From Porphyra umbilicalis (lineage: Eukaryota > Rhodophyta > Bangiophyceae > Bangiales > Bangiaceae), in assembly GCA_002049455.2 (NCBI GenBank), contig KV918830.1, positions 186,001 through 250,000 of the forward strand: a DNA stretch of 64,000 bases, read 5' to 3'. Positions 31,235 through 63,081 of this stretch are shown in pieces (within the stretch, counting starts at the first letter, position 1; every line of letters starts with the position of its first letter). The notes under the pieces were generated by a model, which saw only the letters and a program-made list of their open reading frames with translations, was not told the origin of the DNA and did no database searches. Made by a program: the position numbers and the translations under genes.

Positions 31235-31492
31235 ATTTTGTGTCGTGACCTGTCGAGTGCGATCTGCTTCACATATTTTGTGCCTGAACTATAAACATAA
31301 CCATATTGTTTTTCACGAGTGGACAACAAGCGTTTTCCTGCAGAACAACGCGACGCGAAAATTTCAGTTCAGCTAATCCCGAAGCCCTTTTTGTGGGAAG
31401 ATGTCTGCTTTATCGATGATGAGTTGTGGGCCTAAAACCTTCGCTTGCATTGGGAAGTTGGGTTGTCGCGAAATTGGAAAACAACGAAGGTG

Positions 31493-36316: not shown

Positions 36317-38480
36317 CTAGCCAGTCTTAAGATGAGATCCTGACCTCTTTGAGAACAGTACCTCGTGCTGACCACAGGGCAGCACGAATGCTACCTGCGG
36401 CACATGATGAGCTCGGGTCATCGCGACGCCAGCTTCTACGTCGATTGATACCAGCACGGGCTGTCCTAGGATAGAGAGCGCCATCGGTGGTAATTTCCAC
36501 TTCTCTACGGCGACGTGTAGCGCTCCGTCAATCGCTCCAATGAAATGCACACGAACTAATAGCTGGCATCAGAATCCGTCGCTTCGGATCTTGATTATTT
36601 TGAGCAGCCCTCTTTCTCCTCAGAAACGGATCAATAATGATATGTGTAAGTGCGTGGCCTTCCCGTAGAACGCTAGGACAGCATTAGGGGCCTGGCGTCC
36701 CCACAACTCCTCAGTAGAAGATCGTACAGTGTGCAGGGCTTTCTTCGGACGCCAGGTCACGTCGAAAGCAGACGAGAGTCACCCGTGTGGAGCTAGTCTG
36801 TGGAACTGAACAGTCTTCAGGGGCTTGCCACTCCAGCAGCCACGACGCAGGAACCTCATATTCGTCTGGCATTAAAAGCGGTCTCTAGAAGTGCTCGGTG
36901 TCCCTCCATCTCTGCATGGAGTACTCAGCGGGGTTCCGGCTGTTGCTCTGGCTTACCTCCTGCTTTGCCAGTTGGTGAAACTTTTCGAAGATCAGCTCTC
37001 ACACTGCTGGACCGAGCTGCACAAGAGGTAGCGTGCGGTACAGAAGCTTCAGTAATTTGTGAACTGCCGGGCCATTGGATGCACAATATCGCATCTTGTG
37101 CAGTGCTGAGTATTTCTAGGGCCAACGGAGTTTGAGCACGTGGCAGCTATGGGGAAGTCGAACACACCGAGGCACAAGTTCACCCTTACAACCGTATTCT
37201 CGCGCTTGAACGCGTCATACGCGGCGACACCGTCGCTGTTCATTCGCAGAGCATCATCCACGACACGCCTGATCAGAGCATCGGAGTTCGCTCCTGATGG
37301 CAGGTAGAAGAATGGTCGAACGGAGAATGCACAATCTTCCAATGATAAAGATGTATAGCCCCCATAGTACCCTTCCAAGCTCCCTCGACGTCTCTTGAAC
37401 ACGTTGATTTCATCTCCGTACAGAGATACATATAGAGTGTACGGATCCTTCTCTGGGAGCACATCGTTCGTTTGTTCAGCCACCTGGGACAGCTCTAGAG
37501 GCTGCAACTCTGTCAAAGCCGACCAGGAATCCTTCTCACGCTCGTCTGAACCCCGCACATCAATGACAAAAACTCCTCCGGACCGGTTGAACCTTAGCGT
37601 TAGCCTCCGATCGGCCATGAAGCACGCAGCCCAGTGCTCAGGGGGCTCGACGCCAGGAAAGACTTCGAAAAGCGCTGTCATGTATCCAACTCTGAGCGTA
37701 CTCTGACGAGCGTACGTTGATTCTTGGATGGGAACATCCCCATCGGGGGCAATGGCAGTGCTCTCCAAGCGGGCTTGAAGCGACGTAGTGCTGTAGAAGA
37801 AGATTTTGACAACACAGTCAATGTCATACCTGTTCCCAGCACGGAAGAAGGCAATCTGGAAGCTAAACCGAGCAGGATCTCTGGCGGCTACGGTTTGAAA
37901 GAACTCTGCGGGACGCTCAACGGTCCCTGCCCCTGAGCCCCCTTTGTTGTGGAACAGCGCTGCCGTGACAGAATCTCCAAAGTCACACTTGATGTGATCA
38001 GAGAACGGAATATATGACACCGTCACGTCGGGGAGTGTTCTTAATGCTTTCCCTTTGCCAACGGGTAGCTTTCGGGTCGTCACATCCCTTCGAATAGGCA
38101 CAGATAGCTTCAGCAGCAGCTTTCGCAGTCTTTGCAGTCGCCACCTCGATGGCCACTTCTCCTTCGGGTTAAAAGAGTTCTTGGCCTCCCGCATGACGTC
38201 GTAATGCCTGAAGGTGACACGAGCTCTGCCAAAGAGGTACCCGAAGCATAGAAACTCTCCGTGAGAAGTGAACTCGCCAGCAGAACTGTCCTCGTCACTC
38301 GAAATCTCTGTGTCCTCAGAGGGGCATCCTTGCCGCTCAGAGTCCGTCGACAAGGCAACCTCTGCATAGCCATCCGTTGCAGCCGCGGAGGGCATGTTTG
38401 TTTCGCTAAGAGGCTCAACACGCCCTGTGACGCTGCTGCTGGGTTCCTACACGCCGGTCGTGTCTACTTCAACAGGAGCG
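36317..38480 (-). pseudogene. CACTA/Tnp2-like transposase, copy B, internally deleted
   Basis: Read leftward, the N-terminal 450 residues are well kept (YAEVALSTDSERQGCPSEDTE ... FGRARVTFRHYDVM ... DPYTLYVSLYGDEINVFKRRRGS ... VRVNLCLGVFDFPIAATCSNSVG), including both Asp motifs. Near 37080 it jumps directly to sequence that in copy C lies about 640 bp further on, so the central part is deleted. The C-terminal part (LFVRVHFIG-like, then PCGQHEVLFSKRSGSHLKTG) is frame-damaged. Compare the intact copy C. Confidence 0.85.
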
Positions 38481-39468
38481 GTAGCACTCTGGGCTTCCAT
38501 ATGCATTAAGTTACCATTGAAAAAATGGAAAAAGGCCGCCCCTCGCGGGCCGCGCCTGCGAAACTTCATTTATTCGAGCCCCCAGCGAGAGCTGGCTGCG
38601 AGGCGACAGTAGGTGATAGAAGAGTGTCGACGAAAGCAGGTATCGTAGGCAAGCACGGTACTAGGGGCCGAAAAAGGGCACAAGTGGAATCGAATCGAGC
38701 TCTTGCGGTACGAGTGACAGAGCTCGGCGGTAACAAGAAGTGTGCAACCGGGCGACGAGGCCATCGGGATTGCAACAGGACAGGAAGAGACAAGGGGATC
38801 ACGCACAACGAAGCCAAGTCAATCGGTCGAAGGGTAGTAAGAGAGCAACATGCGCGCTTGACAAAATGCAGGACGTCTATGCACGCAAGATCAGTTTCGC
38901 ACGTGCCCGCAGTCCAGGTTCGGATACGGGCCGCTGCACTGGCCTCATCTGAGATCTCCCTTAGTCTGGTGACTACCCTCATGTCTATCCATGCGACAGG
39001 TTCAGAGCATTCGTTAAAGACCATCTTGCTTTCGCGAGGCTGATCGGATGGCAAAGAAGAAGTCAGATCATCCGCCAGATGATCCGACGGTCAGTTTGGT
39101 GCTCGGTCTTTTAATTTTTCCCGCGAACTAACCACCGAGCGGTCCAGGTCCGATCCTAATGTGACCCGCGGAACACTTCTGGAAAACACGGGGACTGAAG
39201 CGCAAAAATAGTTCCCAGGTCATTCTGACAAAAGGTTCTCTGTCTCATTCTATTCTAGTTGAAGGACCATATCAAGATAGATCCACGAAAGAACAGGAAG
39301 ACTATCCTGCTTCGTTCCTGAAATCAGTTCTGGATGATATCAGAAATCAGTTATCGCGACCACTAGGATCGATCTGGCTGCAGTCGAAAAACGATCCTTA
39401 GAATTTTCCTCAGGAAAGTTCGCGTTTGACACCAGGATTAAATAAGGAAGAGCAAGCAACGCGCTGTG

Positions 39469-40941: not shown

Positions 40942-42207
40942 ATGGCCGTCGTCATCGCGTGCCGGTGGCCCGGCGCAGATGAGGCCACGCTCGTCTTTTC
41001 TGCTCAGGGACCCGACCGCGGATGTCCACGAGATCTCACCAAGCATGTGTGGCTTCAAGGAGACCTGGAGCTGCAGGTGTTTGACAACAAACATGACGCC
41101 GCGGCGTGGACGAACGCGGGGCTGCAGATGATGCCGCGGGGCGTGCAGGTTCCCTTACCGTCTTCATGTTCGGACCGTGCCGTTCGATTAATGCTGGGAA
41201 GTCGCTGCAGGTTCTTTAACCTGAGCACTGATCGTGGCTTGGAGCGCTTCTTTTCCGCGCTTCGCGACAGTGAAGGTGTTGGGCTGATGCGTACCAAGTG
41301 CTTTTCGTCATTGGCTGCGGCCCTGTCTTCAGTGAAGGTCGCAGCCCCCTCAACATCTACCTCACCCAGTCCATCTATGGTGGGCCTTCAAGTTCGAATC
41401 GCATCCAGTGCGCCGCACCGATCGGTGGGCATCGTACAAGCACCCGCTTCGCTTGGTCGTGGTGAGGGCCGGCCATGGGCCAGGCCTCCGCCTCCCCCGG
41501 CCTCCTACTGGTCCCCGACGGCAACAACCGGGGTCGGTGTCAAGAGGTCCCGCGCGGAGGGATCTTCCGGCCGTGGCGGCTGGAGGGTATCAGGTCATCG
41601 TCGACCTATCGATCCACACGCATCTCTCATCGTCTCCATGCTGGAGAGGGGTGAAAGTGTGTTTGTGACCGGCATCGCCGGGTCGGGCAAGACGACGATA
41701 CTCAAGAAGGTTCTGCCCTTCCTAGAGGTGCTCGACCCCAGGATGGGAGTCTGCGCGACGACTGGAGTGGCGGCCAGTCTCTTGGGTGGAGTTACGCTCC
41801 ACTCCTGGCTCGGGCTAGTGCCGGAGGTTGTTCTCGCTGTGGCCTCTGAGTTGGACGTGGAGGACATTGTAGCGCGATTGCCGCTCCCTGCCCGGCTTCG
41901 GATATGCAGCGCGCGCTTCCTGATCGTGGACGAGATCTCCATGCTGGATGCTGCGCTGCTGGATGTGGTAGACCGTCTCTGCCGCCACCTACGGAGAGCT
42001 CCTTCAACGCCGCTAGGGGGTATTGTCGTCCTTTTTTGCGGCGATTTTTTGCAGCTGGCACCTGTGCAAGGTCAAGGGGCCCTCTCTGGGCAGTTTTCTT
42101 TTCAAGCCGATGTGTGGCCGATGCTCTTCGGCCCGAGGGCTGTCGTTCTTTCGACAGCCGGCCGCCATGGTGCCGATGCTGAGTTCCGCTCCTTACTNCC
42201 CAGATAA
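40942..42207 (+). CDS. PIF1-like: PIF1-family DNA helicase, N-terminal half, cut at assembly N
   Basis: PIF1 helicases are 5'-3' superfamily 1B DNA helicases that act on forks, G-quadruplexes and telomeres. From the ATG at 40942 about 235 residues of unrecognised N-terminus precede the motor. Motif I (Walker A) is GIAGSGKTT at residues 244-252. The usual PIF1 VCATTGVAASLLGG-x-TLHSWLGL stretch follows. Motif II is LIVDEISMLD with D330/E331, and motif III is LFCGDFLQLAPV with D368. The frame breaks at the N at 42198, and nothing downstream resembles motifs IV-VI, so the second domain is missing from this assembly or the gene is truncated. No HUH Rep domain is present nearby, so there is no case for a Helitron. 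Confidence 0.85.
   Translation: MAVVIACRWPGADEATLVFSAQGPDRGCPRDLTKHVWLQGDLELQVFDNKHDAAAWTNAGLQMMPRGVQVPLPSSCSDRAVRLMLGSRCRFFNLSTDRGLERFFSALRDSEGVGLMRTKCFSSLAAALSSVKVAAPSTSTSPSPSMVGLQVRIASSAPHRSVGIVQAPASLGRGEGRPWARPPPPPASYWSPTATTGVGVKRSRAEGSSGRGGWRVSGHRRPIDPHASLIVSMLERGESVFVTGIAGSGKTTILKKVLPFLEVLDPRMGVCATTGVAASLLGGVTLHSWLGLVPEVVLAVASELDVEDIVARLPLPARLRICSARFLIVDEISMLDAALLDVVDRLCRHLRRAPSTPLGGIVVLFCGDFLQLAPVQGQGALSGQFSFQADVWPMLFGPRAVVLSTAGRHGADAEFRSLXPR
42198..42198. other. ambiguous base / assembly join
   Basis: The only N in the window. Helicase coding stops here and sequence character changes afterwards, so the flanks may not be truly contiguous. Confidence 0.8.
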
Positions 42208-43345
42208 TGTAGAGTCGTTACCAGAAACTTCGAGTAACAGACATATCACGGTCGACAAGGGTGACAGGCGCTGTCGAGAGCTCTCCCAGTCAACCGAGAG
42301 TCGTCACAAGCAGCCGAGATCAACAGAGTTATCACGGGCAACCAGGGCGACGGGCGCGGGCAACGGCTGGTCCAGTCAAGAGAAACTCGTCACAAGCAAC
42401 CTTCATCAAGAGGCCTCTGACGGGGGCCAGGGCCACGGGACGCGCGGTGCGGAGTCAAAGAGAGATGACGAGGGGTGCGGGACGCACGATGCCGAGGCAA
42501 CGAGAGGACAGTGGGACGAGGCCCTGCGGGCACTGGCTCTTCTGAGAGCAATGGCCCCAGTCCGGTGGACGTCCGCGACGGGTCAGTTCTCGTCATGAGC
42601 TCGCCCCTGAGATACCGCCACGCAGGCGCCAGACCCCGTCCAGTAAATGCATTTGTAGGTCAGGGGGCTCTGCCTTGTCGGGGCGCTGTCGCACTTGCCG
42701 CTGAAGCGCTCGCAAGAGTCCCAGGAGAAGAATTACTATGGCATCCAGTGGCAAGCGCGGACGGCGAGGGGACGCAAGAATCGTGTGGTCCAGACTAGCT
42801 GCACTCTCTCGCTGGGGGCCCCGGCGTGGATTGATCTCTGTGCAACTACAGACAATTGATGTTCCAATACGTATTTCGCCGCATCCGTCTGGGAAATTGC
42901 AAACGATCCGCTCCGATCGGTCCGGTCGACGAGATCTCGATTTGACCGGCGGCACCCTCCACCGTGGATCTGCCGCCACACAAACGCGCGTGGCGCCCGC
43001 AGATCCAACGGCCACGGAGGCCACGAGGGGACACCTCGATCGGGCACCGCAAGTGTCCGTCAGACCGTCATATCCCCGCGAACCGTCGAGGCAGCGCCCC
43101 CTCCTCCCCCCGAGCACATGCCACTGTTTGCTAACGCCAGCCGCACCGTCGTCCTACCGCGCACTGCCCCGCATCTCTTTGCCACCCGATCCGCTGTGGC
43201 AACGGCGTGCTCCCTTCACCCCCCGCGTGCGCGCTGTGGGCGTTCTCTTTTCATCATCGTAAGTGTAACCCGCTTGTTCCCCCCCCCCCCCTCGCCTTCT
43301 TCCCCCCCCCCCCCCTCGCCCGCCGCACGCTGTGTCTGGCACCAT
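42208..43345. other. no supported gene
   Basis: Only unsupported short frames. Long C-runs lie at about 43279-43290 and 43302-43314. Confidence 0.4.
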
Positions 43346-43350
43346 CGATC

Positions 43351-44312
43351 ACCCCCGAAAGGGTCGACATCGCACGGCACGTGGAAAGGGACGCCCCCCT
43401 TCCACGAGCTCCCCTGAAAAGGGTCGACGCTGCACGGCTCCCCGAAAGGGTCGAGACCGCACGGCACCTGGAAAGGCACGCCCCCCTTCCACGGCTCCCC
43501 TGAAAAGGGTCGAGCTGCACGGCTCCCCGAAAGGGTCGAGACCGCACGGCACCTGGAAAGGCACGCCCCTTCCACGGCTCCCCTGAAAAGGGTCGACGCT
43601 GCACGGCTCCCCGAAAGGGTCGAGACCGCACGGCACCTGGAAAGGCACGCCCCTACCACGGCTCCCCTGAAACGGGTCGACGCTGCACGGCTCCCCGAAA
43701 GGGTCGAGACCGCACGGCACCTGGAAGGGACGCCCCCTTCCACGGCTCCCCTGGAAAGGGTCGACGCTGCACGGCTCCCCGAAAGGGTCGACACCGCACG
43801 GCACCTGGAAAGGCACGCCCCCCTTCCAGAGCTCCCCTGAAAAGGGTCGACGCTGCACGGCTCCCCGGAAGGGTCGACGAATTGTCATGCCTTCGTCGCT
43901 GTACAACGACCGTCGTTGTGATCCCCCGAAAGGGCGGACCGTACACTGCACCCCGAAAGGGACGGCCAGTTGTGTCATCGGCGTTGTTTGGTCTTCGTGC
44001 ACGTCTATCTATCGGCCCTTCGGTCCCCTGAAAAGGCGTACCACACACGGTATCCTGAAAGGGAAGACCTGTAGTCTCATCGGTGTTTGACAGCTGCTGG
44101 CCCGGATCACCATCGTTGAGTCGGTCCCCCCGTGAGGGCGGACTGCGCACAGCACCCCGAAAGGGACGGCCAACTAACCCGAAAGGGACGGCCAACTGTG
44201 TGATCTATGGTGCAAGGAGCTCGCCACACCGCTACCTGCGTGCTCTGTGGCCTCCCGAAAGGGTTGGTTGTGATTCGCGTCCCGAAAGGGACCACGCACT
44301 CCCGAAAGGGAT
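43351..44312. repeat. array of short palindromes with GNRA-type loops, including an 84-87-bp tandem repeat
   Basis: About 25 copies of a compact palindrome occur: CCCGAAAGGG, CCCTGAAAAGGG, CCTGGAAAGG, CCCGGAAGGG and CCCGTGAGGG. The middle four bases are GAAA, GGAA or GTGA, all of the GNRA form, closed by 3-5 complementary pairs (up to GTCCC/GGGAC near 44278). From 43406 to 43885 they sit in a tandem repeat with unit starts at 43406, 43493, 43576, 43660, 43744 and 43829. On the minus strand the same words read Pro-Phe-(Arg/Gln/Gly), so a coding explanation must also be considered. The array lies directly upstream of copy C's large gene. Confidence 0.8.
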
Positions 44313-44378
44313 TGACGAATCGCGGAGCTACCCGCTAGTACGGGCAACAATCTATCGCTGGCAAGCCACACGCCGGAT

Positions 44379-44972
44379 ATGGATGGGGATCGGGACGCGA
44401 GCTGGTGCCGTGGCAGCGGTGGCGACCGGAGCGCGTCTGAAGACGCTCCGACTGAGAACGGGCCCAACAAGCGGCAGCGCAACGAGTCCCGGGGCGCGCA
44501 ACCTGCGATGTCGCAGGCGCAGGTGCTCCAGGCCGAAGCTGCGCGGGCGCAGCGTGTCGCTGCCCAGATGCGTGTGGCGGCCCGTGCCGCCCAGCGCGCC
44601 GAGGACCTCGCGCGGCGGTCTGCTGTGGGCCCCTCGCAATGTGATGCGGGCCAATCGAGCGGCGACGGTGGTGACGTCGGCCGCGGCCGTGCTCGCGGCC
44701 GCGGAAGATCCAAGAGGCAAAGTCGCGGGGCCGGCTCTCACATGGGCGGCGACGGACCCTCAGAAACTGTGGCAAGCCAAGGTCGCGGCAGACCAGCACC
44801 CGACCGTGATCTGGGAGCGTCATCACGGACCGGATCGGCGCCGGAGCACGGGGCGCGATATCTGCGACCGCCCCGAACCGCGCGATGCGGCGCCTGCATC
44901 TGCAGGGAGGTGGGGTCCCAGATGCTCCTGGCAACGCGGGCGCCAATCGCTGGCGTAACCGGCCTGCAGTAG
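44379..44972 (+). CDS. possible N-terminal exon or ORF of the copy C large gene
   Basis: From the ATG at 44379 the frame reads MDGDRDASWCRGSGGD, then an Ala/Arg/Gln-rich segment that could form a coiled coil (QVLQAEAARAQRVAAQMRVAARAAQRAEDLARR) and a Gly/Arg-rich tail (GRGRARGRGRSKRQSRG). It ends before the main frame of 45187 begins. I recognise no domain. It could be an upstream exon, a separate small gene, or a frame without function. Confidence 0.35.
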   Translation: MDGDRDASWCRGSGGDRSASEDAPTENGPNKRQRNESRGAQPAMSQAQVLQAEAARAQRVAAQMRVAARAAQRAEDLARRSAVGPSQCDAGQSSGDGGDVGRGRARGRGRSKRQSRGAGSHMGGDGPSETVASQGRGRPAPDRDLGASSRTGSAPEHGARYLRPPRTARCGACICREVGSQMLLATRAPIAGVTGLQ

Positions 44973-45186
44973 TGTCCGATCGCGCCTCGGTGCACGCCGC
45001 CAACGCATCTGGCGACGGCGAGCCACGGCCGTCGGCTGCCGCACTAGTGGGAGTGCTGCATGACGCGCGGCGGCCGCTGATTGGGCAATCCACAGGGGGA
45101 CTGTCAATGGCCCAGTTGCGGATGGTTCTGAGCGCACTTGAGATTGCCGGTCGACAATTGTTCCCAGCGCAGATCAATCGCGGACC

Positions 45187-48100
45187 ATGCGCAACTGCTC
45201 CGGTGGTTGCGGCGACGCCGCCGCCCTGGATTCGCTACTGGCGGCGGCTGTCAGGGGGTTCGAAGATGACGTCAGCCGCTCCGCACCCAATGCGGCCGAC
45301 ACTGCCTCTGTATTTGTGCAGCGTGCCTTGCAGTGGCACGCGTGCAGCGGCGGCTGTTCCAGTGGGCTGCGAGCGACAACGATGCACGAGCCACGGCCTC
45401 GCCCGCTCGAAGCGACTGCCGAGGCCCCAGCCGCACGGGGCGAGCTGCTGCATGCCGTCAGTCCACTGCCGGACCGCGCCGTTGCTGTGCCAGCCGCCCA
45501 CGACGCTCCACCGCAATCCAATGTACGCCAGGCTCCCTTGCGAGGCTCCCTGGGACTCACCGCGGGCCTCTCCGCGCCTAGTCCTCGGCCGCACGATGTG
45601 CCACGACATGCTCACTCGATTGCCCGAGGGAATGCTCGGCCTTTAGCTGCTGGGGAGGCCGTCAGAGGGGATCGCTCACGCCTTTCAACGCAGCAGCGCT
45701 GTAGCGAAGACCTCGTTTACGACGATGACATGACCATTGCCACGGCGAGCCCGGCACGACAGCGAGGTCGACGTCCCTGGCATGCTACCGCCACCGAGGT
45801 GGGCGCATGTCTGCAGCGCCCCCCCCCGCCACGGTTTCCCCGTGAGCCACCTTTTTTGTTTCCTTCCAACGCCTCTCGGAGTGTGGAGCTCTTCCGAGTT
45901 GATCGGATCTCTCTGGCGGAGGGCAATGCGCTCTCGCGGCGCGTGGTGGATGGGCTATTCCTCTGGTTCCTGATGAAGTTTGGCCACGACGGGGGCTATG
46001 GCGGTCTCCGAGTGTTGACCTCCTTGGACGCTGATGACATGGCAGCATCCGTGTGCCGAGATGATCGCCTGGTTGGGCGGGTTCGTGACGCAATCGTGGA
46101 CCGGCTGGTGTTCAGCGCAGGCACGACGGTAGTTCCCGTGTGTACGGCTGGTACCTGGTGGGCAATCGTTGTGACGGGTCTGCGGGAGACCGTCGTACGG
46201 GTGGTCGCCTCTGTGCGCTCAGGCGCGGCGCTCTCGGATGAGGCCGTGCCAGGGGCGGCGATGGCTGTGATTGACACCTCGTCGGTCGGCAAGGGTGAGG
46301 GGGGGTGGGACGAGCATGTGGTGACAGGCCTCTTCCGTGCGTTAACGGTGGCCATCTGCACTACCTACCTGCGCACTTGCGACGATTCGCGGAAAACTAG
46401 GCTCGTCGAGGATGGCCTGCGCGACCTTCTTCCCATCAAGGTGCTCAAGACTCGGGCAGGGGGGCGAGACACGACGGCGGACAACCTGATTGCGTTCATG
46501 GCGATGCTTCTGTCGGCTGAGCCGGGACAAGCAACCCGCCTTCTTCGCGGTCACGACTCGAGCCAATGGCAGAAGGCCCACGCCCCTCGGCGCTTTCGTA
46601 GCCTTGTCCGCCGCATTATCGACGCCCATCGACCAGGTGGTCTTAGGGACGATGAGGAGGAGCCAGCAGAGGAGCTGCTCAATGGTCGTGATATGTCTGA
46701 CGAAGAGGAGACGGACGCCGATGACGCAATGCGAGACGTGGACGATGACTACGATGCCGGGGGGTCGGGTGACCGGGCAGGCTACATGAGCGACTACCGT
46801 GATGGCGGCCGAGATGGCGGCCTCGATGCGAATCCCGGCAGTCGGGTCGAGTCGATGAGTCGACGTGGATCGCATGGGGCCCTCGATGGTGCTCGTGGTG
46901 GTGATGTACGGCGGCGTCGCGTTTCCCTTGGGCGCGTCGTCGGCGACACAGTCGTCGGCCTAGGTGCCACCCATGGTAGGCTCAGCGGCGGCGGACGAGG
47001 TTCCCACCGCCAATCTGTCGGACATGCGCAAGGTGAACCTGACACCCGAGTTGCTGATGGCATGCATGTGGGTGGTGCTGGCCTTCACTCTGACGCAGAT
47101 GCTGCCCGCGCCCAACCCATTGCATGTGCAAAAGGGGCACATGGTCGCCGAGGTCCCGATGCCGCCCGAGAAGATGCTGGTGACTGTTACGCTGGCAGAG
47201 GAGGCCGACGACGGGGACTCGTGCATGGACAAGGTGCAGACGACGACGGCTCTCAACGAGCAGATGCATTGGATGTTCGACAAGCACGCCGTCCGTCTCC
47301 TGAACGTGCGCATGTTCGCGACGATGCTGGTCGTGCCGGTGCTATCGGAAGACATTATGGCAACAGAGGTGGTGACGGCCGCGAAGGAGGTGAAAGTGCA
47401 GGTTGCGACGGCTGGCATGGTGGTGACCAAGAAGATGGACACGGGGTTGGCGGTTGCGACGATGAGCTTGATCAAAGTGGAGGAGATGAAGGCACCCATC
47501 ATGGCAATGGCGCTGACGACCGGCGCCACCAAGCTCCTTGTGCCGTCGCCAGCGCGGGGGGCGGACGCATGGCGCATGTCCAATCAGTCGCATGTGTGGC
47601 GCGAGAGCGTGAAGCCCGAGCTGTACATGGCAACACTGGGGGCGGCGATGTCGGAGGTGCTGTTGACGCCCATCTTCCATATCGCGCTGATCACGGGCGA
47701 GCGCGTGGTGCTCGTGATGACCCACGACCCGGTTCCGATCAAGGTCATCTTGCTGCAGGCGTGCACGATGCCGGCAGCCGAAGCGTTGGACGCGCGCAAC
47801 GAGCGCCTGACGCCCGAGTTCTTAGTGCTGTTCGAGGGGGTGGTGAAGGCCGAGGAGGTGGTGACCAACAACATGTCGACGGCGGTGCAATTGGCAACAA
47901 TGGAGGTGGCGACGGCGGAGGAGCGGTGGACGCCCATCGTCTCGATGGCGATGAGGACCGGCGAGCCCGTGGTGCTCGTGCTGACCCAGGAGCCGGTGTC
48001 GATCACGGTCATGTGGATGGAGGAGGACATGGTGCCCGCCACCGAAGTGTGGGACGTGCGCAACAAGCGCCTGACGCCCGAGATGCTCATGATGCTCGAC

Positions 48101-49227
48101 GAGGTGATGATCAGCGACGTGACGACGGCGTCGCTGGTGGCGACACTGGCGGCGGCGACGGCGGAGGCGCTGTTGACGCACATCGTCCCAATCGCGCTGA
48201 TCACGGGCGAGCGCGTGGTGCTTGTGATGACCCACGATTCGGTTCCGATCAATGTCATCTTGCTGCAGGCGTGCACCATGCCAGCAGCCGAAGCGTTGGA
48301 CGTGCGCAACGAGCGCCTGACGCCCGAGTTCTTAGTGCTGTTCGAGGGGGTGGTGAAGGCCGAGGAGGTGGTGACCAACAACATGTCGACGGCGGTGCAA
48401 TTGGCAACAATGGAGGTGGCGACGGCGGAGGAGCGGTGGACGCCCATCGTCTCGATGGCGATGAGGACCGGCGAGCCCGTGGTGCTCGTGCTGACCCAGG
48501 AGCCGGTGTCGATCACGATCATGTGGATGGTGGAGGACACGGTGCCCGCCACCGAGGTGTGGGACGTGCGCAACAAGCGCCTGACGCCCGAGATGCTCAT
48601 GATGCTCGACGAGGTGATGATCAGCGACGTGACGACGGCGTCGCTGGTGGCGACACTGGCGGCGGCGACGGCGGAGGTGCTGTTGACGCACATAGTCCCA
48701 ATCGCGCTGGTCACGGGCGAGCGCGTGGTGCTCGTGATGACCCACGACCCGGTTCCGATCAATGTCATCTTGCTGCAGGCGTGCACGATGCCGGCAGCCG
48801 AAGCGTTGGACGTGCGCAACGAGTGCCTGACGCTCGAGTTGCTGATGCTGCGCGAGGAGGTGGTGCTGGTCGTCGTACCGACGCCGATGGGGGACGCGCT
48901 GAGGGCGTTTCCGACTCGCGACGGGGTGTACATGGAGGCGTGCACGGCCAGGGAGGTGGGGAGAACCAGGTCGTCCACGGCCAGAGTGGTCGTGTTGCAG
49001 GAGGCGGTGGCGTTCGTGGAGACGGCGGCCAACTAGGTGACAATGGCGAACGTGATGATGACCAGCGACGTGGCGACGGCTCGGGGCCTGTGCGTGCCAC
49101 CACGGCTGCGGCGGAGCCTGATGCTGCCAGCTCCTCAACGGAGGGCGCCGGTTCCGTGGCCCAGACGGAAGAGCGGTTGGATGTCGCTGGCCTAGGGTTT
49201 GAACTCCTCGGTTTGGGTCCCGCTTAG
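45187..49227 (+). CDS. large element protein, first part: possible Ulp1-like region plus Gly/Asp/His-rich repeats
   Basis: The frame of 1346 codons starts at an ATG. Residues about 1-230 are low complexity. Residues about 233-415 look globular: VELFRVDRISLAEGNALSRRVVDGLFLWFLMKFG, then VVPVCTAGTWWAIVVTG and MAVIDTSSVG. The order (a helix pair, a Pro-Val strand followed by a W-x-x-V-V strand, then an I-D-T/S loop) recalls Ulp1/C48 SUMO peptidases, which plant CACTA and Mutator elements sometimes carry. However, the position of the catalytic His is Trp (W324 or W325), so activity is doubtful and the call is weak. From about residue 520 it is acidic, then Gly/Asp/Arg/His-rich across the 510-bp repeats. 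It ends in TAG at 49225-49227 with AQTEERLDVAGLGFELLGLGPA. The JmjC frame continues in the same phase with no ATG near its start, and copy B is uninterrupted at this point, so one protein of about 2060 aa was probably ancestral. Confidence 0.6.
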   Translation: MRNCSGGCGDAAALDSLLAAAVRGFEDDVSRSAPNAADTASVFVQRALQWHACSGGCSSGLRATTMHEPRPRPLEATAEAPAARGELLHAVSPLPDRAVAVPAAHDAPPQSNVRQAPLRGSLGLTAGLSAPSPRPHDVPRHAHSIARGNARPLAAGEAVRGDRSRLSTQQRCSEDLVYDDDMTIATASPARQRGRRPWHATATEVGACLQRPPPPRFPREPPFLFPSNASRSVELFRVDRISLAEGNALSRRVVDGLFLWFLMKFGHDGGYGGLRVLTSLDADDMAASVCRDDRLVGRVRDAIVDRLVFSAGTTVVPVCTAGTWWAIVVTGLRETVVRVVASVRSGAALSDEAVPGAAMAVIDTSSVGKGEGGWDEHVVTGLFRALTVAICTTYLRTCDDSRKTRLVEDGLRDLLPIKVLKTRAGGRDTTADNLIAFMAMLLSAEPGQATRLLRGHDSSQWQKAHAPRRFRSLVRRIIDAHRPGGLRDDEEEPAEELLNGRDMSDEEETDADDAMRDVDDDYDAGGSGDRAGYMSDYRDGGRDGGLDANPGSRVESMSRRGSHGALDGARGGDVRRRRVSLGRVVGDTVVGLGATHGRLSGGGRGSHRQSVGHAQGEPDTRVADGMHVGGAGLHSDADAARAQPIACAKGAHGRRGPDAAREDAGDCYAGRGGRRRGLVHGQGADDDGSQRADALDVRQARRPSPERAHVRDDAGRAGAIGRHYGNRGGDGREGGESAGCDGWHGGDQEDGHGVGGCDDELDQSGGDEGTHHGNGADDRRHQAPCAVASAGGGRMAHVQSVACVAREREARAVHGNTGGGDVGGAVDAHLPYRADHGRARGARDDPRPGSDQGHLAAGVHDAGSRSVGRAQRAPDARVLSAVRGGGEGRGGGDQQHVDGGAIGNNGGGDGGGAVDAHRLDGDEDRRARGARADPGAGVDHGHVDGGGHGARHRSVGRAQQAPDARDAHDARRGDDQRRDDGVAGGDTGGGDGGGAVDAHRPNRADHGRARGACDDPRFGSDQCHLAAGVHHASSRSVGRAQRAPDARVLSAVRGGGEGRGGGDQQHVDGGAIGNNGGGDGGGAVDAHRLDGDEDRRARGARADPGAGVDHDHVDGGGHGARHRGVGRAQQAPDARDAHDARRGDDQRRDDGVAGGDTGGGDGGGAVDAHSPNRAGHGRARGARDDPRPGSDQCHLAAGVHDAGSRSVGRAQRVPDARVADAARGGGAGRRTDADGGRAEGVSDSRRGVHGGVHGQGGGENQVVHGQSGRVAGGGGVRGDGGQLGDNGERDDDQRRGDGSGPVRATTAAAEPDAASSSTEGAGSVAQTEERLDVAGLGFELLGLGPA
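47640..48890 (+). repeat. 510-bp tandem repeat in the large gene of copy C
   Basis: ATGACCCACGA recurs at 47717, 48227 and 48737, exactly 510 bp apart. Each unit is itself two diverged halves of about 264 and 246 bp. All periods are multiples of three. More diverged units extend back to about 46960. Three frames and the minus strand stay open across it; the frame continuous with both flanking domains is the Gly/Asp/His-rich one. Confidence 0.9.
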
Positions 49228-49242
49228 CGTCTTGGTGATGCG

Positions 49243-51378
49243 TTGAATAGCTTGGACTCTGCAGACCTCAACATCCTCGCCGGTTTTGCTCCTGTGACAC
49301 CATGTCCTCGACACATAGCTGCAGAAGCTGACGGTGGTGGCTCAGCAGAGGCGCGCACGAACGGTCCTAGCCCTGGAACTGTGGTTGATGGCGACGCAGA
49401 ACCGGGCGCCGCTGGCGTCGCAGCCATTCGTGCAGAGCCACGCCCGGGGGCCACTGCAGGCCACCCTGCTGGCGACGATAGCGCTGAGAGGAGGGAAACA
49501 ACGCTACGTAGAGCACCTGCCCGCGCCGACAGAGATGCCTGTGGCTCACTTGAGGCATCGCGTCTACGCGAAGTACGGCCAAATGTCGAGACGGGCACTT
49601 TACAGCGGCGTCCGATGGACTTTCACAGAATTCCCATTACTTGTATAAGTACCGTTCCGGAGCTTGGACTGCATGGTCTGATTCGATCCAAGTTGGCATC
49701 GATGCGGACTTCCGGTGCGCACGTGTTCCGAGTGGTTGCACCCGCGGTGCGCCCGGTTCCTAGCAGGGCTCCAAAGCGACTTGTCGGGGACAACGTCAGG
49801 GTTCGCATTCAAAGCTTCCCACAGTTCCCGACAATTGTCAGCGACACGTTCCGTGGTCGCCGTTCTATGGACCACAGCGTGAAGGGCAGAGAGCTACAGA
49901 ACCAGCTGCCAGCTGAAGGCCAGAAGTGGATGTCAGCAAGCCGGCTGAGTGCCAGGATCGAGGAGAGTTCCAACGCCATGATATCCCGGTACAAGGACCT
50001 CACTGTTTCTAGCTTCCTCAGGAACCTGAACGACGCCAATGTGACCTGGGTCCGAGAGGTGACCGCTGCTGGCCACGAGAAAGCGGTGTTGGGTCCTGGG
50101 AAGCCTCACCCAATTGATGTGTACTATGTGTCGGACTTTTCGCCTGAAAATGAGGACGGGTGCAGCAGGAGTCTGGGAGATCCCGCGTGCAAGGCCGCAG
50201 TGGACCAGTCCTTCCCCACCGACCGACTGCAGAACCCGCGTACCCTGAACCATCACAGTATGCTCGGAGCGGGGTCAACATGTGAAGGTGTCAATACCAA
50301 CTTGCTCTACATGGGAACCATGGGATCGTTCTTCAGCTGGCACGCGGAGGACAGCCTGCTCCTGTCCGTCTCGTACTTGCAGACCGGGGCGAGTAAATAC
50401 TGGTTCTTTGTGCCCAGATCCGAGCTCCCCCTGATGGTGCGCGTCCTGGAAGAACACATGGACCCAGACGTACTACAAGCTGCTGGGGGTGATGTGTGGA
50501 CGGTTCTAGCGAAGAAGGCCGTTTTGTGGCCAGCTACGTTCTTCCTTGCTCACGGAATCAGAGTTGGTTTCCACGCAGTGGAGGTCGGGGACTATGTCGT
50601 GACTGGGTACGGGGTTCCCCACAGTGGCTTTAACGGAGGTAAGAACGTGGCGTCGGCCGTGAACCTTGCATGCACCGGCTGGCTTTCATATGCAGTAAAG
50701 CACGCGGCGCAGTGGCACGGAAAGCTCGCAATCCTGATCCCATTTGAGAAGCTGTTGGTGCTGGCCGCTATGAAGCTTGTTGATGGAGAATGGTGGGTCG
50801 GCAATGCAAAAACATATGAAGCTTGCGACCCAGCCGAGTTCCGACGGGACCTCCTCGTGATGGTGGCCTATCTCGACAAGTATCTCGACCGCGTCCTGGC
50901 TTACATGAAAATGGATGCGCACCGTACTTGCGTCGGCAAGACGCCGACAGTCGTGGGACTCGACCGCGCCCCTCAGCTTGTGCAGCAGTTCGTTGCTGAC
51001 AATGCTGTCGACACGAAACGGGACCCCCTCGTGATTCCACATGAGGATGCTGCAAAGGTGACAGACTACTCGGTGGACGGCGCGTCATGTCCCCACTGCG
51101 GAAAAGTGGCTTGGCTCTCCGTGGTTGTCTGCCAGACGTGCATTGAGGAGCTCGGAGAAGAAGCGGCTAAGTTTGCGCTTTTTCGCTGCTTGGAGTGCGC
51201 GCCAGATGTATTCGATGGCGAGCACGATCGACTCCGCAAGACTCCTCTACCAGGGACCCAGCCCGTGGATGCTCATGTCCCTCTTGTGGTACAGCGACTG
51301 GCCAATGGCCGCGTGTCCTTGATGGTGGAGCACCTGAAGAACATGGTAGCGGTTGATGGAGAAGAAGGGAGGTCGTGA
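49243..51378 (+). CDS. JmjC-domain (2-oxoglutarate/Fe(II) dioxygenase) protein with C-terminal Cys cluster
   Basis: JmjC enzymes of the KDM4/KDM5 kind remove methyl groups from histone lysines using Fe(II), O2 and 2-oxoglutarate. Here residues about 345-480 (numbered from 49243) match the KDM4-like core. GVNTNLLYMGTMG leads to FFSWHAED with metal ligands H367 and E369. LLSVSYLQTGASKYWFFVP has the 2-oxoglutarate-type Lys K385, but Ser where KDM4 has Asn. WPATFFLAHGI comes next, then EVGDYVVTGYGVPHSGFNGGKN with the third ligand H460, then ASAVNLACTGWL. About 340 residues of unknown N-terminal sequence precede the core. A Cys cluster follows: CPHC at 616-619, CQTC and CLEC, a likely zinc module. 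The frame begins at TTG and has no nearby ATG; it lies in phase with the upstream 45187-49227 frame across one TAG. Unlike copy B, the whole JmjC core is uninterrupted and its triad complete. Substrate (histone, transposase or host factor) is unknown. Confidence 0.85.
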   Translation: MNSLDSADLNILAGFAPVTPCPRHIAAEADGGGSAEARTNGPSPGTVVDGDAEPGAAGVAAIRAEPRPGATAGHPAGDDSAERRETTLRRAPARADRDACGSLEASRLREVRPNVETGTLQRRPMDFHRIPITCISTVPELGLHGLIRSKLASMRTSGAHVFRVVAPAVRPVPSRAPKRLVGDNVRVRIQSFPQFPTIVSDTFRGRRSMDHSVKGRELQNQLPAEGQKWMSASRLSARIEESSNAMISRYKDLTVSSFLRNLNDANVTWVREVTAAGHEKAVLGPGKPHPIDVYYVSDFSPENEDGCSRSLGDPACKAAVDQSFPTDRLQNPRTLNHHSMLGAGSTCEGVNTNLLYMGTMGSFFSWHAEDSLLLSVSYLQTGASKYWFFVPRSELPLMVRVLEEHMDPDVLQAAGGDVWTVLAKKAVLWPATFFLAHGIRVGFHAVEVGDYVVTGYGVPHSGFNGGKNVASAVNLACTGWLSYAVKHAAQWHGKLAILIPFEKLLVLAAMKLVDGEWWVGNAKTYEACDPAEFRRDLLVMVAYLDKYLDRVLAYMKMDAHRTCVGKTPTVVGLDRAPQLVQQFVADNAVDTKRDPLVIPHEDAAKVTDYSVDGASCPHCGKVAWLSVVVCQTCIEELGEEAAKFALFRCLECAPDVFDGEHDRLRKTPLPGTQPVDAHVPLVVQRLANGRVSLMVEHLKNMVAVDGEEGRS

Positions 51379-51596
51379 TGTGGCCGAAGTATTTTTTTCT
51401 GCTGTTGTTTATTGTCATTTTTTGGGACCTTGAATCTTCTTTGCAGTGGGCGGCGGGCCATTCATATGCCCTCTAGAGCGCAACATGTTGTCTGCATTCC
51501 TTTCTCATGGCAATTTAAGACACTTTCTTCGTTTCCGACAGATCGCACAAGCGACGAACGAAACAGAAACAAAGCAGTGGAAGGCTATGCCCCTGA
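51379..51596. other. intergenic region between convergent genes of copy C
   Basis: The 218 bp are T-rich just after the JmjC stop (TTTTTTT at 51391). They are nearly identical to the corresponding region of copy B (35035-35257), where the inverted-repeat element is inserted at its end. Confidence 0.6.
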
Positions 51597-54503
51597 CTAG
51601 CCACTCTTGAAATGAAATCCCGACCTCTTGGAGAACAGGACGTCGTGCTGACCACAAGGCAGCACGAAGGCTATCTGCCGCACATGGTGAGCTCGGGTAA
51701 TCGTGACGCCAGCTGCTACGTCGATTGCTACCAGCACGGGCTGTCCGAGGATAGAGAGCGCCATCGGTGGTAATTTCCACTTCTCCACGGCGACGTGTAG
51801 CTCTCCGTCAATCGTTCCAATGGAATGCACACGAACGAAGAGCTGCGCATCAGAATCCGTCGCTTCGGAGCTAGGTTCTTCTGAGGAGCCCTCCCTCTCC
51901 TCAGAAACAGAGAGTGTCGACCCTTCTCGGATCACGAATGATCTGTGTGGGTGCGTTGCCTTCCCGTAGAACGCGAGGACAGCATTAGGGGCCTGGCGTC
52001 TCCACAACTCCTCGGTAGAAGATCGGACAGTGTGCAGGGCTTTCTTCGGGCGCCAGTTCACGTCGACAGCAGACGAGGGTCGCCCGTGCGGAGCTAGTCT
52101 GTGGAACTGGACCGCCTTCAGGGGCTGGCCACTCCTCCCAAGCAGCCACGACGCAGGAATTCCATACTCGTCTGGCATTGACAGCAGTCTCGAGAAGTGC
52201 TCGGTGTCCCTCCATCTCTGCATGGAGTACTCAGCGGGGTTCCGGCTGTTGCTCTGGCTTACCTCCTGCTTTGCCAGTTGGTGAAACGTTTCGAAGATCA
52301 GCTCGCACACTGCTGGTCCGAGCTGCACAAGGGGGAGCGTGCGGTACAGAAGCTCCAGTAATCTGTGAGCTGCCGGGCGCTCCCAACTTCCTTCAAAAGG
52401 TACCAGTCGACGTAGCTTCATCATCAACTGCTCACCCAGAACCTGGAGCGCGGCTACAGTCGGGCGTCCTCTCATTGCTTGTTCTCCATCAGAGGCAAGG
52501 GTTGGTAGATAGAAAAAAGATATGGAAAACATGCGCAGAGCTTTGAGAGCACTAAGCGCCGCAAGGGCGTGTGGTGTCGTGGCATCGGTGTGTACAAGGT
52601 ACTGTAGCACCGTGGGGCCCACCGTCAGCAGGACTGCATAGTCAGACATTGACAGAGTTGTGCCACCCATCTTCTCTGGCTCAAGAGACAACAGGACGGT
52701 GTGAGTTGGGATATGCTTAGCGCTGCGACGCATTTCCCGCATGAACCTGTCGCGCTGTTCAACGGACAGTGCCTCATACGCTTCCATCAAGAGATTAGCG
52801 CCGATGTTATAGTACAGCAGGTGCGAGGGAGCGACAATAACATGGGAATGTATATCAAAGCTCCCTTCACCACGGGCCTGCTCCAGGCGCATCAGCAACG
52901 TACCACTCTTGTCTGTGATGCCGTTCACCACTCGACAGTAACGAGCGTCCTGGACGTCGACAGACACTGTGCTGCTCATCGCGCGCTCCCTCCTCTCTGA
53001 TGTCGTCTTTGGATGCACAATGTCGCAGCATGTGCAGTGCTCAGTACCTCTAGGGCCAACGGAGTTTGAGAACGTGGCAGCCATGGGGAAGTCGAACACA
53101 CCGAGGCACAAGTACACTCTTACAACAGCATTCTTGCGCTTGAACGCGTCATAAACGGCGACACCCTCGCTGCTCATTTGCAGAGCATCATCCACGACAC
53201 GCCTGATCAGAGTATCGGAGTTTGCCCCTGGTGGCAGGTAGAAGAGTGGTCGAACGGAGAATGCACGATCTTCCAATGATAAAGATGTATAGCCCCCATA
53301 GTACCCCTCCAAGCTCCCTCGACGCCTCTTGTACACATTGAATTCATCCCCGTACAGAGATACACATAGAGTGTATGGATCCTTCTCTGGGAGCGCATCG
53401 TTCGTTTGTTCAGCCACCTGGGACAGCTCTAGAGGCTGCGGCGCTGTCAAAGCCGACCAGGAGTCCTTCTCACGCTCGTCTGAGCCCCACACATTAATGA
53501 CGAACACTCCTCCGGACCGGTTGAACCTCAGCGTTAGCCTGCGATCGGTTGTGAAGCACGAAGCCCAGCGCTTAGGGGGCTCGACGCCTGGAAGAACTTC
53601 AAATAGCGCTATCATGTCTCCACTTCTTAGCGTACTCTGACGAGCGTACGTTGATGCTGAGATTGTAACATCTCCATCGGGGGCAATGGCGGTGCTCTCC
53701 AAGCGGGCCTGAAGCGACGTAGTGCTGTCAAAGGAGATTTGGACAACACAGCCGATGTCATACCTGTACCCAGCACGGAAGACGGCATTCTGGAAGCTAA
53801 ACCGAGCAGGATCTCTGGCGGCTACGGTTTGAAAGAACTCTGCGGGCCGCTCAACGGTCCCTGCCCCGGAGCCCCCTTTGTTGTGGAACAGCGCTGCCGT
53901 GACAGGATCTCCAAAGTCACGCTTGATGTGTTCAGAGAACGGAATATATGAAACCGTCACATCGGGGAGTTTGCGCAATGCTTTCCCTTTGCCAACGGGT
54001 AGCTGTCGGGTCGCCACCTCCCGTCGAAGAGGCACAGCTAGCTTCAGCAGCAGCTTGCGCAGCCTTTGCAGGCGCCACCTCGATGGCCACTTCTCCTTCA
54101 GGTTAAAAGAGTTCTCGGCCTCTTGCATGACGTCGTACTGCCTGAAGGTGACACGAGCTCGGCCAAAGAGGTATCCGAAGCATAGGAACTCTCTGCGAGA
54201 AGTGAACTCGCCAGCAGAACTGTCCTCGTCACTTGAAAACTCTGTGTCTTCAGAGGGGCATTCTTGCCGCTCAGAGTCCGTCGACAATGCAACCTCTGCA
54301 TAGCCATCCGTTGAAGCCGCGGAGGGCATGTTTGTTTCGCCAAGAGTCTCAACACGCCCCGTGATGTTGCTTCTGGGTTCCTCCACGCCGGTCGTGTCAA
54401 CGTCAACAGGGGCGGTAGCACTCAGGGCTTCCATATGCATCAAGTTACTATCGAAAAAATTGAAGAAGGCCGCCCCTCGCGGGCCGCGCCTGCGACGCTT
54501 CAT
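51597..54503 (-). CDS. CACTA (EnSpm)/Tnp2-like DDE transposase, intact, 968 aa
   Basis: This is the transposase of the JmjC-carrying transposon, expected to cut at the element ends. The frame is uninterrupted from ATG at 54503 to the stop at 51597. An acidic Ser/Glu-rich N-terminus (residues about 40-95) is followed by a long globular part. Three places match the Tnp2/CACTA DDE order. The first Asp is D386 in SLYGDEFNVYKRRRGS. The second is D471 in LGVFDFPMAATFSNSVG, with a CxCC metal-binding-like motif (C490, C492, C493) just after, as in Tnp2 (NDFPA...GWS..G..ACPxC). Glu is E738 in GPAVCELIFETFHQLAK, followed by SNSRNPAEYSMQRW. HRLLELLYRTLPL before the Glu also fits. KDZ-type transposases share this plan, so exact superfamily is open. 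Two further broken copies lie at 28609-31234 and 36317-38480. Strand is opposite to the JmjC gene. Confidence 0.8.
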   Translation of the reverse strand: MKRRRRGPRGAAFFNFFDSNLMHMEALSATAPVDVDTTGVEEPRSNITGRVETLGETNMPSAASTDGYAEVALSTDSERQECPSEDTEFSSDEDSSAGEFTSRREFLCFGYLFGRARVTFRQYDVMQEAENSFNLKEKWPSRWRLQRLRKLLLKLAVPLRREVATRQLPVGKGKALRKLPDVTVSYIPFSEHIKRDFGDPVTAALFHNKGGSGAGTVERPAEFFQTVAARDPARFSFQNAVFRAGYRYDIGCVVQISFDSTTSLQARLESTAIAPDGDVTISASTYARQSTLRSGDMIALFEVLPGVEPPKRWASCFTTDRRLTLRFNRSGGVFVINVWGSDEREKDSWSALTAPQPLELSQVAEQTNDALPEKDPYTLCVSLYGDEFNVYKRRRGSLEGYYGGYTSLSLEDRAFSVRPLFYLPPGANSDTLIRRVVDDALQMSSEGVAVYDAFKRKNAVVRVYLCLGVFDFPMAATFSNSVGPRGTEHCTCCDIVHPKTTSERRERAMSSTVSVDVQDARYCRVVNGITDKSGTLLMRLEQARGEGSFDIHSHVIVAPSHLLYYNIGANLLMEAYEALSVEQRDRFMREMRRSAKHIPTHTVLLSLEPEKMGGTTLSMSDYAVLLTVGPTVLQYLVHTDATTPHALAALSALKALRMFSISFFYLPTLASDGEQAMRGRPTVAALQVLGEQLMMKLRRLVPFEGSWERPAAHRLLELLYRTLPLVQLGPAVCELIFETFHQLAKQEVSQSNSRNPAEYSMQRWRDTEHFSRLLSMPDEYGIPASWLLGRSGQPLKAVQFHRLAPHGRPSSAVDVNWRPKKALHTVRSSTEELWRRQAPNAVLAFYGKATHPHRSFVIREGSTLSVSEEREGSSEEPSSEATDSDAQLFVRVHSIGTIDGELHVAVEKWKLPPMALSILGQPVLVAIDVAAGVTITRAHHVRQIAFVLPCGQHDVLFSKRSGFHFKSG

Positions 54504-55403
54504 TTATTCGAGCCCCCAGCGAGAGCCGGCTGCGAGGCGATATGAAGTGATAGAAGAGTGTCGACGAAAGCAGGTATCGTGGGCAAGGACGATACGAGGG
54601 GCCGCAAAAGGGCACAAGTGGAATCGAATCGAGCTCTTGCGGTACGAGTGACACAGCTCGGCGGTAACAAGAAGTGGGCAGCCGGGCGACGAGGCCGTCA
54701 GGATTGCAACAGGACAGGACGAGTCAAGGGGACCACGCACGACGAAGCCAAGTCTATCGGTCGAAAGGTAGTAAGAGAGCAACATGCGCGCTTGACAAAA
54801 TGCAGGACGTCGATGCACGCAAGATCAGTTTCGCTCGTGCCCGCAGTCCGAGTCCGGATACGGGCCGCTGCACTGGCCTCATCGGAGATCTCCCTTAGTC
54901 TGGTGACTATTCTCATGTCTATCCATGCGACAGGTTCAGAGCTTTTGTCAAAGACCATCTTCCTTCCGCGAGGCTGATCGGATGGCAAAAAAGAAGTCAG
55001 ATCATCCGCGAGTTGATCCGACGGTCAGTTTGGTGCTCGGTCTTTCGTTTGTTCTCGCGAACTATTCACCGAGCGGTCCAGGTCCGATCCTGATATGATG
55101 CGCGGAACAGTTCTGAAGAACACGGGTACTGGAGCGCAAAAATAGTTCCCAGGTCATTCTGACTGAAAGGTTCTTTGTCTCATCCCATTCTAGTTAAAGG
55201 ACCATATCAAGATAGATCCACGAAAGAACCGGAGGACTATTCTGCTTCGGTCCTGAGATCGTTACTGGATGATCTCAGAAATCGGTTATCGCGACCACTA
55301 CGATCGATGTGGCTGCAGTCGAAAAACGATCCCCAGAATTTTCCTCAGGAAACTTCGCGTTTGACACGAGGATTAAATAAGGAAGAGCGAGCAACGCGCT
55401 GTG
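54504..55403. other. right terminal non-coding region of copy C
   Basis: About 900 bp without a supported gene, well conserved with 38400-39468 of copy B. It must hold the transposase promoter and the terminal/subterminal signals. A purine-rich stretch and GATCCGACGG/GATGATCCG-type words occur near 55000-55030. Confidence 0.55.
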
Positions 55404-59888: not shown

Positions 59889-59911
59889 GCGGTCGCCGGG
59901 GCGGGCGGTTC

Positions 59912-63077: not shown

Positions 63078-63081
63078 CCTT

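What the first reader, a model, noticed from the sequence alone, without database searches (positions are those of the whole stretch)
44379..55403. A CACTA-like DNA transposon that carries its own JmjC dioxygenase
Seen: an intact Tnp2-like transposase (minus) convergent with a large plus-strand frame holding a JmjC core with H367, E369 and H460, K385 and a Cys cluster. The pair recurs, in the same arrangement and together with the same non-coding tail, in copy B (31.4-39.5 kb), so the two genes move as one unit. Known: fungal KDZ transposons are associated with TET/JBP 2-oxoglutarate oxygenases. I know of no described transposon with a JmjC histone-demethylase-like enzyme. Inference: the element may erase repressive histone methylation at its own copies or target sites.
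Basis: partly seen in the sequence, partly recalled or inferred. Interest (0 to 1): 0.93.

Follow-up and report, generated by a model that had tools for sequence, protein, structure and literature searches.

The report
Red-algal transposons carrying a JmjC enzyme
A group of large jumping-DNA elements in a red alga carries, next to the enzyme that moves them, a gene resembling those that erase methyl marks from histones; the gene travels with the elements and is kept by selection, which suggests a tool against silencing, though its activity is untested.

The parts
42199..55403 (+). Copy A of the F6 element as present in the window; the left part (third gene and left end) is missing at the assembly joint
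   Evidence: Nine other loci match from 42199, next to the N at 42198; other copies continue left to a CACTGCG end; right terminus 55403
42198..42198 (.). Single N, assembly joint
   Evidence: Only non-ACGT base of the window; a second copy (C415a) has an N at the same place
43336..44170 (.). Tandem repeats (period about 84 bp) upstream of the JmjC gene; in copies with a complete left part they lie between it and the divergent third gene
   Evidence: family F3 has a different repeat block in the same place
45700..46740 (+). N-terminal domain of the large protein, SENP/Ulp1 fold, no invariant His or Cys
46741..49224 (+). Low-complexity linker with coding tandem repeats (clearest at 47628-48947)
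49225..49227 (+). In-frame TAG that separates the N-terminal part from the JmjC part in copy A
49228..51378 (+). JmjC frame (716 aa)
50305..50664 (+). JmjC domain match; H372, E374, K390, H465
   Evidence: PF02373 E 1.5e-15; JMJ13 3.3e-21 single sequence, 5.1e-34 by profile
51088..51276 (+). Conserved Cys/His cluster C621 to H683 after the JmjC
   Evidence: each position kept in 13-16 of the 13-17 rows that reach it
51597..54503 (-). Tnp2-like transposase (968 aa), about 27 residues shorter than relatives
   Evidence: PF02992 3.7e-8; alignment of 12
54504..55403 (.). Non-coding right tail with terminal motif 55371-55403
   Evidence: 14 tail loci in the genome, 11 of them with an F6 JmjC (counted by hand); motif
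31981..35032 (+). Copy B, JmjC gene in four broken pieces
36320..38446 (-). Copy B, transposase remnants in two pieces
39436..39468 (-). Copy B, right terminal motif
28637..31484 (.). Fragment of a different JmjC transposon family (F1) beside copy B
   Evidence: 77-89% DNA identity to L013/L014/L018

Best explanation
The window holds one damaged copy and one dead copy of a CACTA/EnSpm-like DNA transposon group that has made a JmjC protein one of its own genes. Gene order, pieced together from several copies of F6 and F3: left end CACTGCG (read in F6); a small gene on the minus strand; a tandem-repeat block private to the family; a long plus-strand gene (SENP/Ulp1-fold domain, low-complexity linker, JmjC with a Cys/His cluster); the convergent transposase; right end CGCTGTG. 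Shown: the unit is bounded by ends and, in 5 of 6 copies, 2-bp target duplications; the gene pair recurs in seven diverged families; catalytic residues are kept; JmjC is under purifying selection between F1 and F2 and diverges in step with the transposase. Inferred: the JmjC protein is an Fe(II)/2-oxoglutarate demethylase brought to element chromatin (perhaps through SUMO-like binding by the SENP-fold part) that removes repressive histone methylation from the element's copies, keeping transposase expressed or the ends accessible. The mark is not known. The gene was probably captured from a host JmjC gene such as that on contig C344 before the families split.
For: 2-bp duplications in 5 of 6 F6 copies read at both ends; 90 terminal motifs vs 0 in the control; 63 of 105 JmjC with a correctly oriented end, 61 of them 4.1-6.3 kb away, vs 5 of 105 in any other arrangement; transposase beside JmjC in 19 of 25 loci read; dN/dS for F1 vs F2: JmjC core 0.14-0.24 (9 pairs), JmjC 210-630 0.25-0.29 (6 pairs), transposase 0.13-0.27 (6 pairs); distances r 0.978 in 14 copies, 0 of 9999 permutations as high, 0.967 with one copy of each of six families; transposon JmjCs separate from three host JmjCs, 99/97; H372 21 of 21, E374 20 of 21, H465 19 of 20, K390 19 of 21 rows; profile match to demethylases JMJ13, KDM5A, JMJ14, KDM4; 0 PF00145 matches in the host, so silencing there is unlikely to rest on 5mC; SENP fold.
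Against: No activity, expression or chromatin data. AlphaFold2 on the JmjC part was poor (pLDDT 51, much of the core under 60). K390 is changed in 2 of 21 rows, E374 in 1 of 21, H465 in 1 of 20. 27 of 90 ends have no JmjC match within 12 kb, so JmjC is not needed for every copy to persist; 26 of 105 JmjC matches were not examined; the transposase was not searched genome-wide. Within families ratios run from 0.28 upward and three JmjC-core pairs exceed 2 on few changes (shown part), as expected of decaying copies. Host histone marks were not examined; the methyltransferase search works exon by exon and could miss a split gene. C31 has no matching duplication.
Confidence: 0.66

Rival explanations
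1. The JmjC gene is a captured passenger that moves with the transposon but does nothing for it.
For: DNA transposons often carry host gene pieces (recalled); copies A and B are broken; 27 of 90 ends lack JmjC.
Against: Same position and orientation beside the transposase in seven families; dN/dS 0.14-0.29 between F1 and F2; catalytic residues kept; 33 of 105 JmjC matches lie in frames of 1000 aa or more, two host genes and two with a stop inside the match included (lengths).
Confidence: 0.07
2. The JmjC protein acts without demethylation, as a chromatin-bound anti-silencing scaffold in the manner of fission-yeast Epe1, or hydroxylates a non-histone protein.
For: A JmjC protein with a non-enzymatic anti-silencing role is described (PMC7192584; only the start of the abstract seen, in the listing); the SENP-fold part looks like a dead protease, i.e. 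a binding module.
Against: Metal and 2OG residues nearly invariant; solved relatives are mostly demethylases (which also lists JARID2).
Confidence: 0.22
3. These are remnants of an endogenous virus that had taken up a JmjC gene, as described for KDM4-like genes in Amoebidium giant-virus insertions.
For: Precedent in PMC11244446 (passages read): JmjC genes in 39% of insertions.
Against: Units of 14.5-16.6 kb with transposon ends, 2-bp duplications and a Tnp2 transposase; pattern scans of IMG/VR viral contigs gave no relative of the JmjC or the transposase.
Confidence: 0.02
4. Segmental duplication of a host locus in which a host JmjC gene sits next to a transposase.
For: Two copies 16 kb apart in the window.
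Against: Flanks differ between copies and target duplications match in 5 of 6; six families compared differ by 16-55% in JmjC protein yet share the order.
Confidence: 0.01

Closest known systems
TET/JBP-encoding DNA transposons of fungi (KDZ, EnSpm, ESTA, Plavaka and others; Kojima 2025, PMC12730594: abstract, section 4.2 and passages read)
   Same: DNA transposons, some EnSpm/CMCT with CAC..GTG ends, that carry an Fe(II)/2-oxoglutarate dioxygenase thought to undo silencing marks
   Different: There the enzyme is TET/JBP acting on DNA 5mC; here it is a JmjC of the histone-demethylase kind, fused to a SENP-fold domain, in a red alga in which no C5-DNA methyltransferase was detected
CACTA/EnSpm superfamily
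   Same: Tnp2-type transposase, CAC...GTG ends, short target duplication
   Different: 2-bp duplication rather than the 3 bp of classical EnSpm (2-5 bp for CMCT in PMC12730594), 14.5-16.6 kb, own JmjC gene
Transposons with SET methyltransferase genes (HarbingerS, MuDR of Phytophthora) and Vandal elements with an anti-silencing protein (both as cited in PMC12730594, passages read)
   Same: Mobile elements carrying a chromatin regulator
   Different: SET enzymes write methylation, and nothing read says that the Vandal proteins are JmjC enzymes
KDM4-like JmjC genes in endogenous giant viruses of Amoebidium (PMC11244446, passages read)
   Same: Multiplied JmjC genes in a genomic parasite
   Different: Viral insertions, not a transposon with ends and transposase
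KDM5/KDM4/JMJ13/JMJ14 histone demethylases
   Same: JmjC core with HxE...H and Lys; a Cys cluster follows the JmjC, as in KDM5 (weak alignment only)
   Different: No other Pfam domain found in the transposon proteins scanned; N-terminal SENP fold

Membership tests
CACTA/EnSpm (CMCT) DNA transposons | Tnp2-type transposase | tested here: met
   PF02992 over cut-off in copy A; copy B's remnant just under it; alignment of 12 relatives
CACTA/EnSpm (CMCT) DNA transposons | Ends 5'-CAC...GTG-3' | tested here: met
   CACTGCG...CGCTGTG in six copies of F6 read at both ends
CACTA/EnSpm (CMCT) DNA transposons | Short target duplication (2-5 bp for CMCT per PMC12730594) | tested here: met
   2 bp in 5 of 6 copies; the 3 bp of classical EnSpm not seen
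CACTA/EnSpm (CMCT) DNA transposons | C(2)C and H(3-4)H motifs between second D and E | tested here: inconclusive
   C490 invariant and C493 nearly so after the invariant D471; the H motif and last E were not assigned
CACTA/EnSpm (CMCT) DNA transposons | Terminal inverted repeats | tested here: met
   Short: CACTGCG vs CACAGCG, 6 of 7
JmjC 2-oxoglutarate oxygenases | HxE...H metal triad and Lys for 2OG | tested here: met
   21/21, 20/21, 19/20 and 19/21 rows; roles of the residues recalled
JmjC 2-oxoglutarate oxygenases | Double-stranded beta-helix fold | tested here: inconclusive
   Model pLDDT 51; Foldseek's first 41 rows are KDM5/JMJ14 but TM only about 0.2-0.25
Histone lysine demethylases | Demethylation of histone lysines | not testable with these tools
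   No assay
TET/JBP transposons | TET/JBP domain | tested here: not met
   Pfam scans list JmjC and no TET/JBP family
Ulp1/SENP (C48) proteases | SENP fold | tested here: met
Ulp1/SENP (C48) proteases | His-Asp-Cys triad | tested here: not met
   No invariant or nearly invariant His, Asp or Cys in 10 rows; the triad itself is recalled
Endogenous giant virus | Viral hallmark genes | tested here: inconclusive
   No relatives by pattern scans of viral contigs; no copy was read end to end

The most novel reading that the evidence does not exclude
A histone-side counterpart of the TET transposons: in a host without 5-methylcytosine silencing, a whole radiation of CACTA-like transposons has made a SENP-fold/JmjC fusion its own anti-silencing enzyme, removing repressive histone methylation (and perhaps binding SUMO-marked silencing factors) at its copies.
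Probability: 0.5. Interest if true: 0.92.

Novelty: new variant of a known kind. Interest (0 to 1): 0.86.

Why it matters
Transposons thought to erase DNA methylation are known in fungi, but I found no described transposon with a histone-demethylase-type JmjC enzyme (searches listed in the full report). If the function is confirmed, it suggests that parasites evolve to undo whichever repressive mark the host uses, and it points to histone methylation as a silencing mark in a red alga in which no C5-DNA methyltransferase was detected. Several families, six copies read at both ends and long open frames in siblings make it testable.

Tried and rejected
Segmental duplication, viral origin and passenger status were weighed and set aside (see rivals). 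The left end was first placed wrongly: at 43.3 kb by the tandem repeats, then at 42199 because nine other loci match from there; the latter proved to be an assembly N, and the true left end lies about 2.3 kb further out. In family F3 the break at TTGAG is not shown to be the end either; the left end of F3 was not found. A left terminus with the long right-end motif was sought and not found: only the first bases are shared. The ends of families F1, F2 and F7 were not determined, and the terminal motif does not reach them. Structure prediction of the JmjC part failed. Pfam finds nothing clear for the third gene (351 aa in L036; CC142_N at 0.012, under cut-off). Sequence profiles of the SENP-fold part and of the transposase found no convincing relative in the PDB (best 0.84, and none up to E 1). 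Scans of viral contigs found no relatives. A search for the genome's paper by its size gave nothing fitting. The published Bangiales genome papers and Repbase were not read. L033 (weakest JmjC match) looks like a carrier-protein gene, a false positive (my reading of the DNA).

Full report
What was claimed and what is there. The window encodes a JmjC domain (PF02373, E 1.5e-15, residues 360-479 of the + frame 49228-51378) convergent with a Tnp2-type transposase (PF02992, E 3.7e-8, - frame 51597-54503). Copy B at 31.4-39.5 kb has the same pair and tail, but its genes are broken. Copy A is not perfect: a TAG at 49225-49227 interrupts one long frame, and its transposase lacks about 27 residues present in the relatives that cover this stretch. 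Two sibling copies have JmjC frames of 2181 aa (C64) and 2020 aa (C15), so the normal product is probably one long protein.

The host. The genome is 83.8 Mb in 665 contigs and unnamed. It has 12 phycobilisome-linker matches, 8 of them outside contig C665, which carries the other 4 and looks like the plastid genome, and 10 light-harvesting-protein matches. That is the signature of a red alga (reasoning from recalled biology); the high G+C (0.52-0.79 per kilobase in the window) and the size recall the Bangiales (recalled, not tested). A search for C5-DNA methyltransferases (PF00145) gave 0 matches, while the same search rang in 10 of 14 control genomes, all prokaryotes; it works exon by exon, so a split or very divergent gene could be missed.

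Ends. The right end was found by comparing copies: in families F3, F4 and F6 similarity stops at ...GATTAAATAAGGA(A/C)GAG...C(G/A)CTGTG (L017 and L024 diverge earlier). The pattern has 90 matches in the genome, up to 2 mismatches, and 0 in the reversed control. It does not cover families F1, F2 and F7. The left end took longer. Nine other loci match the window from 42199, but that is only the edge of an N at an assembly joint, present also in copy C415a; in other copies the element goes on for about 2.3 kb and then stops at CACTGCGTGCAGG. Six copies were read at both ends: C31 15,593, C15 14,541, C4 16,614, C64 14,971, C142 15,260 and C53 14,986 bp, lengths from coordinates. Flanks show exactly 2-bp duplications in 5 of 6 (TA, TA, CG, GA, AT); C31 has none. 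These are transposon insertions, not a duplicated host locus.

Co-occurrence. Of 105 JmjC matches, 63 have the terminal motif downstream in the right orientation within 12 kb, 61 of them at 4.1-6.3 kb; 5 of 105 have a motif in any other side or orientation. The 63 use 63 of the 90 motifs; 27 motifs have no JmjC in that position. I read 25 of the 105 loci over up to 10 kb (the 20 best and the 5 weakest): 19 have the convergent transposase; L009, L010 and L011 look like host genes, L020 and L031 have JmjC without transposase in range, L033 is a false positive. Joining the two counts by hand, 73 of 105 JmjC matches are tied to a transposon, 6 others were read and are not, 26 were not examined. 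Within F6, 11 of 14 tail loci have the JmjC and 11 of 12 JmjC loci the tail (counted by hand; one search scored 40 of 56 candidates, the F6 copies on top). The genome-wide transposase search could not be run: 19 calls unanswered.

Families and selection. DNA comparisons of the loci read give seven groups, F7 with one locus: F1 L013/14/18, F2 L012/21/22, F3 L015/16/17/19/23, F4 L024/26/28/30, F5 L025/29/31/32, F6 window and siblings, F7 L027; L020 may be an eighth. Protein distances of JmjC and transposase in 14 copies correlate at r 0.978 (0 of 9999 permutations as high), 0.967 with one copy each of six families, and the trees agree on the main groups; the place of L012 and the order of F3, F4 and F6 are weakly resolved. 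F1 against F2 is the comparison with unsaturated dS (0.32-0.57): JmjC core (residues 300-490) dN/dS 0.14-0.24 in 9 pairs, JmjC 210-630 0.25-0.29 in 6 pairs, transposase 0.13-0.27 in 6 pairs. Other between-family pairs in the part shown have dS of 1.4 or more or saturated and are not used; within families ratios run from 0.28 to above 2, three JmjC-core pairs exceeding 2 on few changes. The output of that call was cut in the middle; the cut part is not quoted. In a 21-row alignment with database relatives H372 is kept in 21 of 21, E374 20 of 21, K390 19 of 21, H465 19 of 20, and the positions of a Cys/His cluster after the domain in 13-16 of the 13-17 rows that reach it.

Mechanism. Shown: a mobile unit with its own JmjC gene, conserved and diverging in step with the transposase. 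Inferred: the product demethylates a repressive histone mark at element copies. The apparent lack of a C5-DNA methyltransferase fits this, because a TET enzyme would have little to act on. Not shown: expression, activity, substrate, location.

Known and new. In fungi, DNA transposons of 11 lineages including EnSpm carry TET/JBP dioxygenases, and SET methyltransferase genes occur in Phytophthora transposons (PMC12730594: abstract, section 4.2 and passages read). KDM4-like JmjC genes are multiplied in endogenous giant viruses of Amoebidium (PMC11244446, passages). I found no paper describing a JmjC-encoding transposon in the listings of searches of an open-access library; Repbase and most subscription papers were not available, so an existing description cannot be excluded. 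Relatives of the JmjC and the transposase in the protein database come from JGI, ENA and metaclust sources with no name given: 14 and 12 at first search, 34 with the JmjC alignment, of which one is a named fish protein with KDM5-type domains (only about 8000 candidates were scored each time). I file the element as a CACTA/EnSpm-like transposon and the gene as a new cargo type: a new variant of the known kind of transposon that carries an epigenetic eraser.

Noticed in passing
window 39469-40560: A 1.1-kb repeat with at least 30 other genome copies at 86-90% identity, directly abutting the right end of copy B (capped list).
   Followed up: no
window 40553-42197: Stretch with a PIF1-like helicase frame (PF05970 1.9e-25), repeated in 5 other places at 88-99% in a capped list, cut by the N at 42198; possibly another mobile element.
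   Followed up: partly
window 42198: Single N that joins other sequence to the middle of copy A; C415 has the same kind of joint, so what lies left of 42198 is not certainly the true neighbour.
   Followed up: yes
window 28637-31484: Fragment of a second JmjC transposon family (F1) next to copy B, suggesting nested insertions.
   Followed up: partly
L053, left side of C31: A repeat of about 195 bp, some 20 copies in a capped list, ends at the left end of C31 and lies within 5 bp of the right end of C15: a possible preferred target.
   Followed up: no
L036:2268-3320, L053, L054: Third gene of the element on the minus strand, similar in families F3 and F6, no known family.
   Followed up: partly
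window 43336-44170; L019:1300-2400: F6 and F3 each have their own tandem-repeat block upstream of the JmjC gene (84-bp units in F6, about 197 bp in F3).
   Followed up: no
window 58232-63912: Long tandem repeats (periods 93/117, 144 and 84 bp), with strong base skew at 61-64 kb.
   Followed up: no
L052 (C7:524386-525043): An internally deleted F6 copy: 578 bp between the 42199-equivalent point and the right end, with no room for JmjC or transposase.
   Followed up: partly
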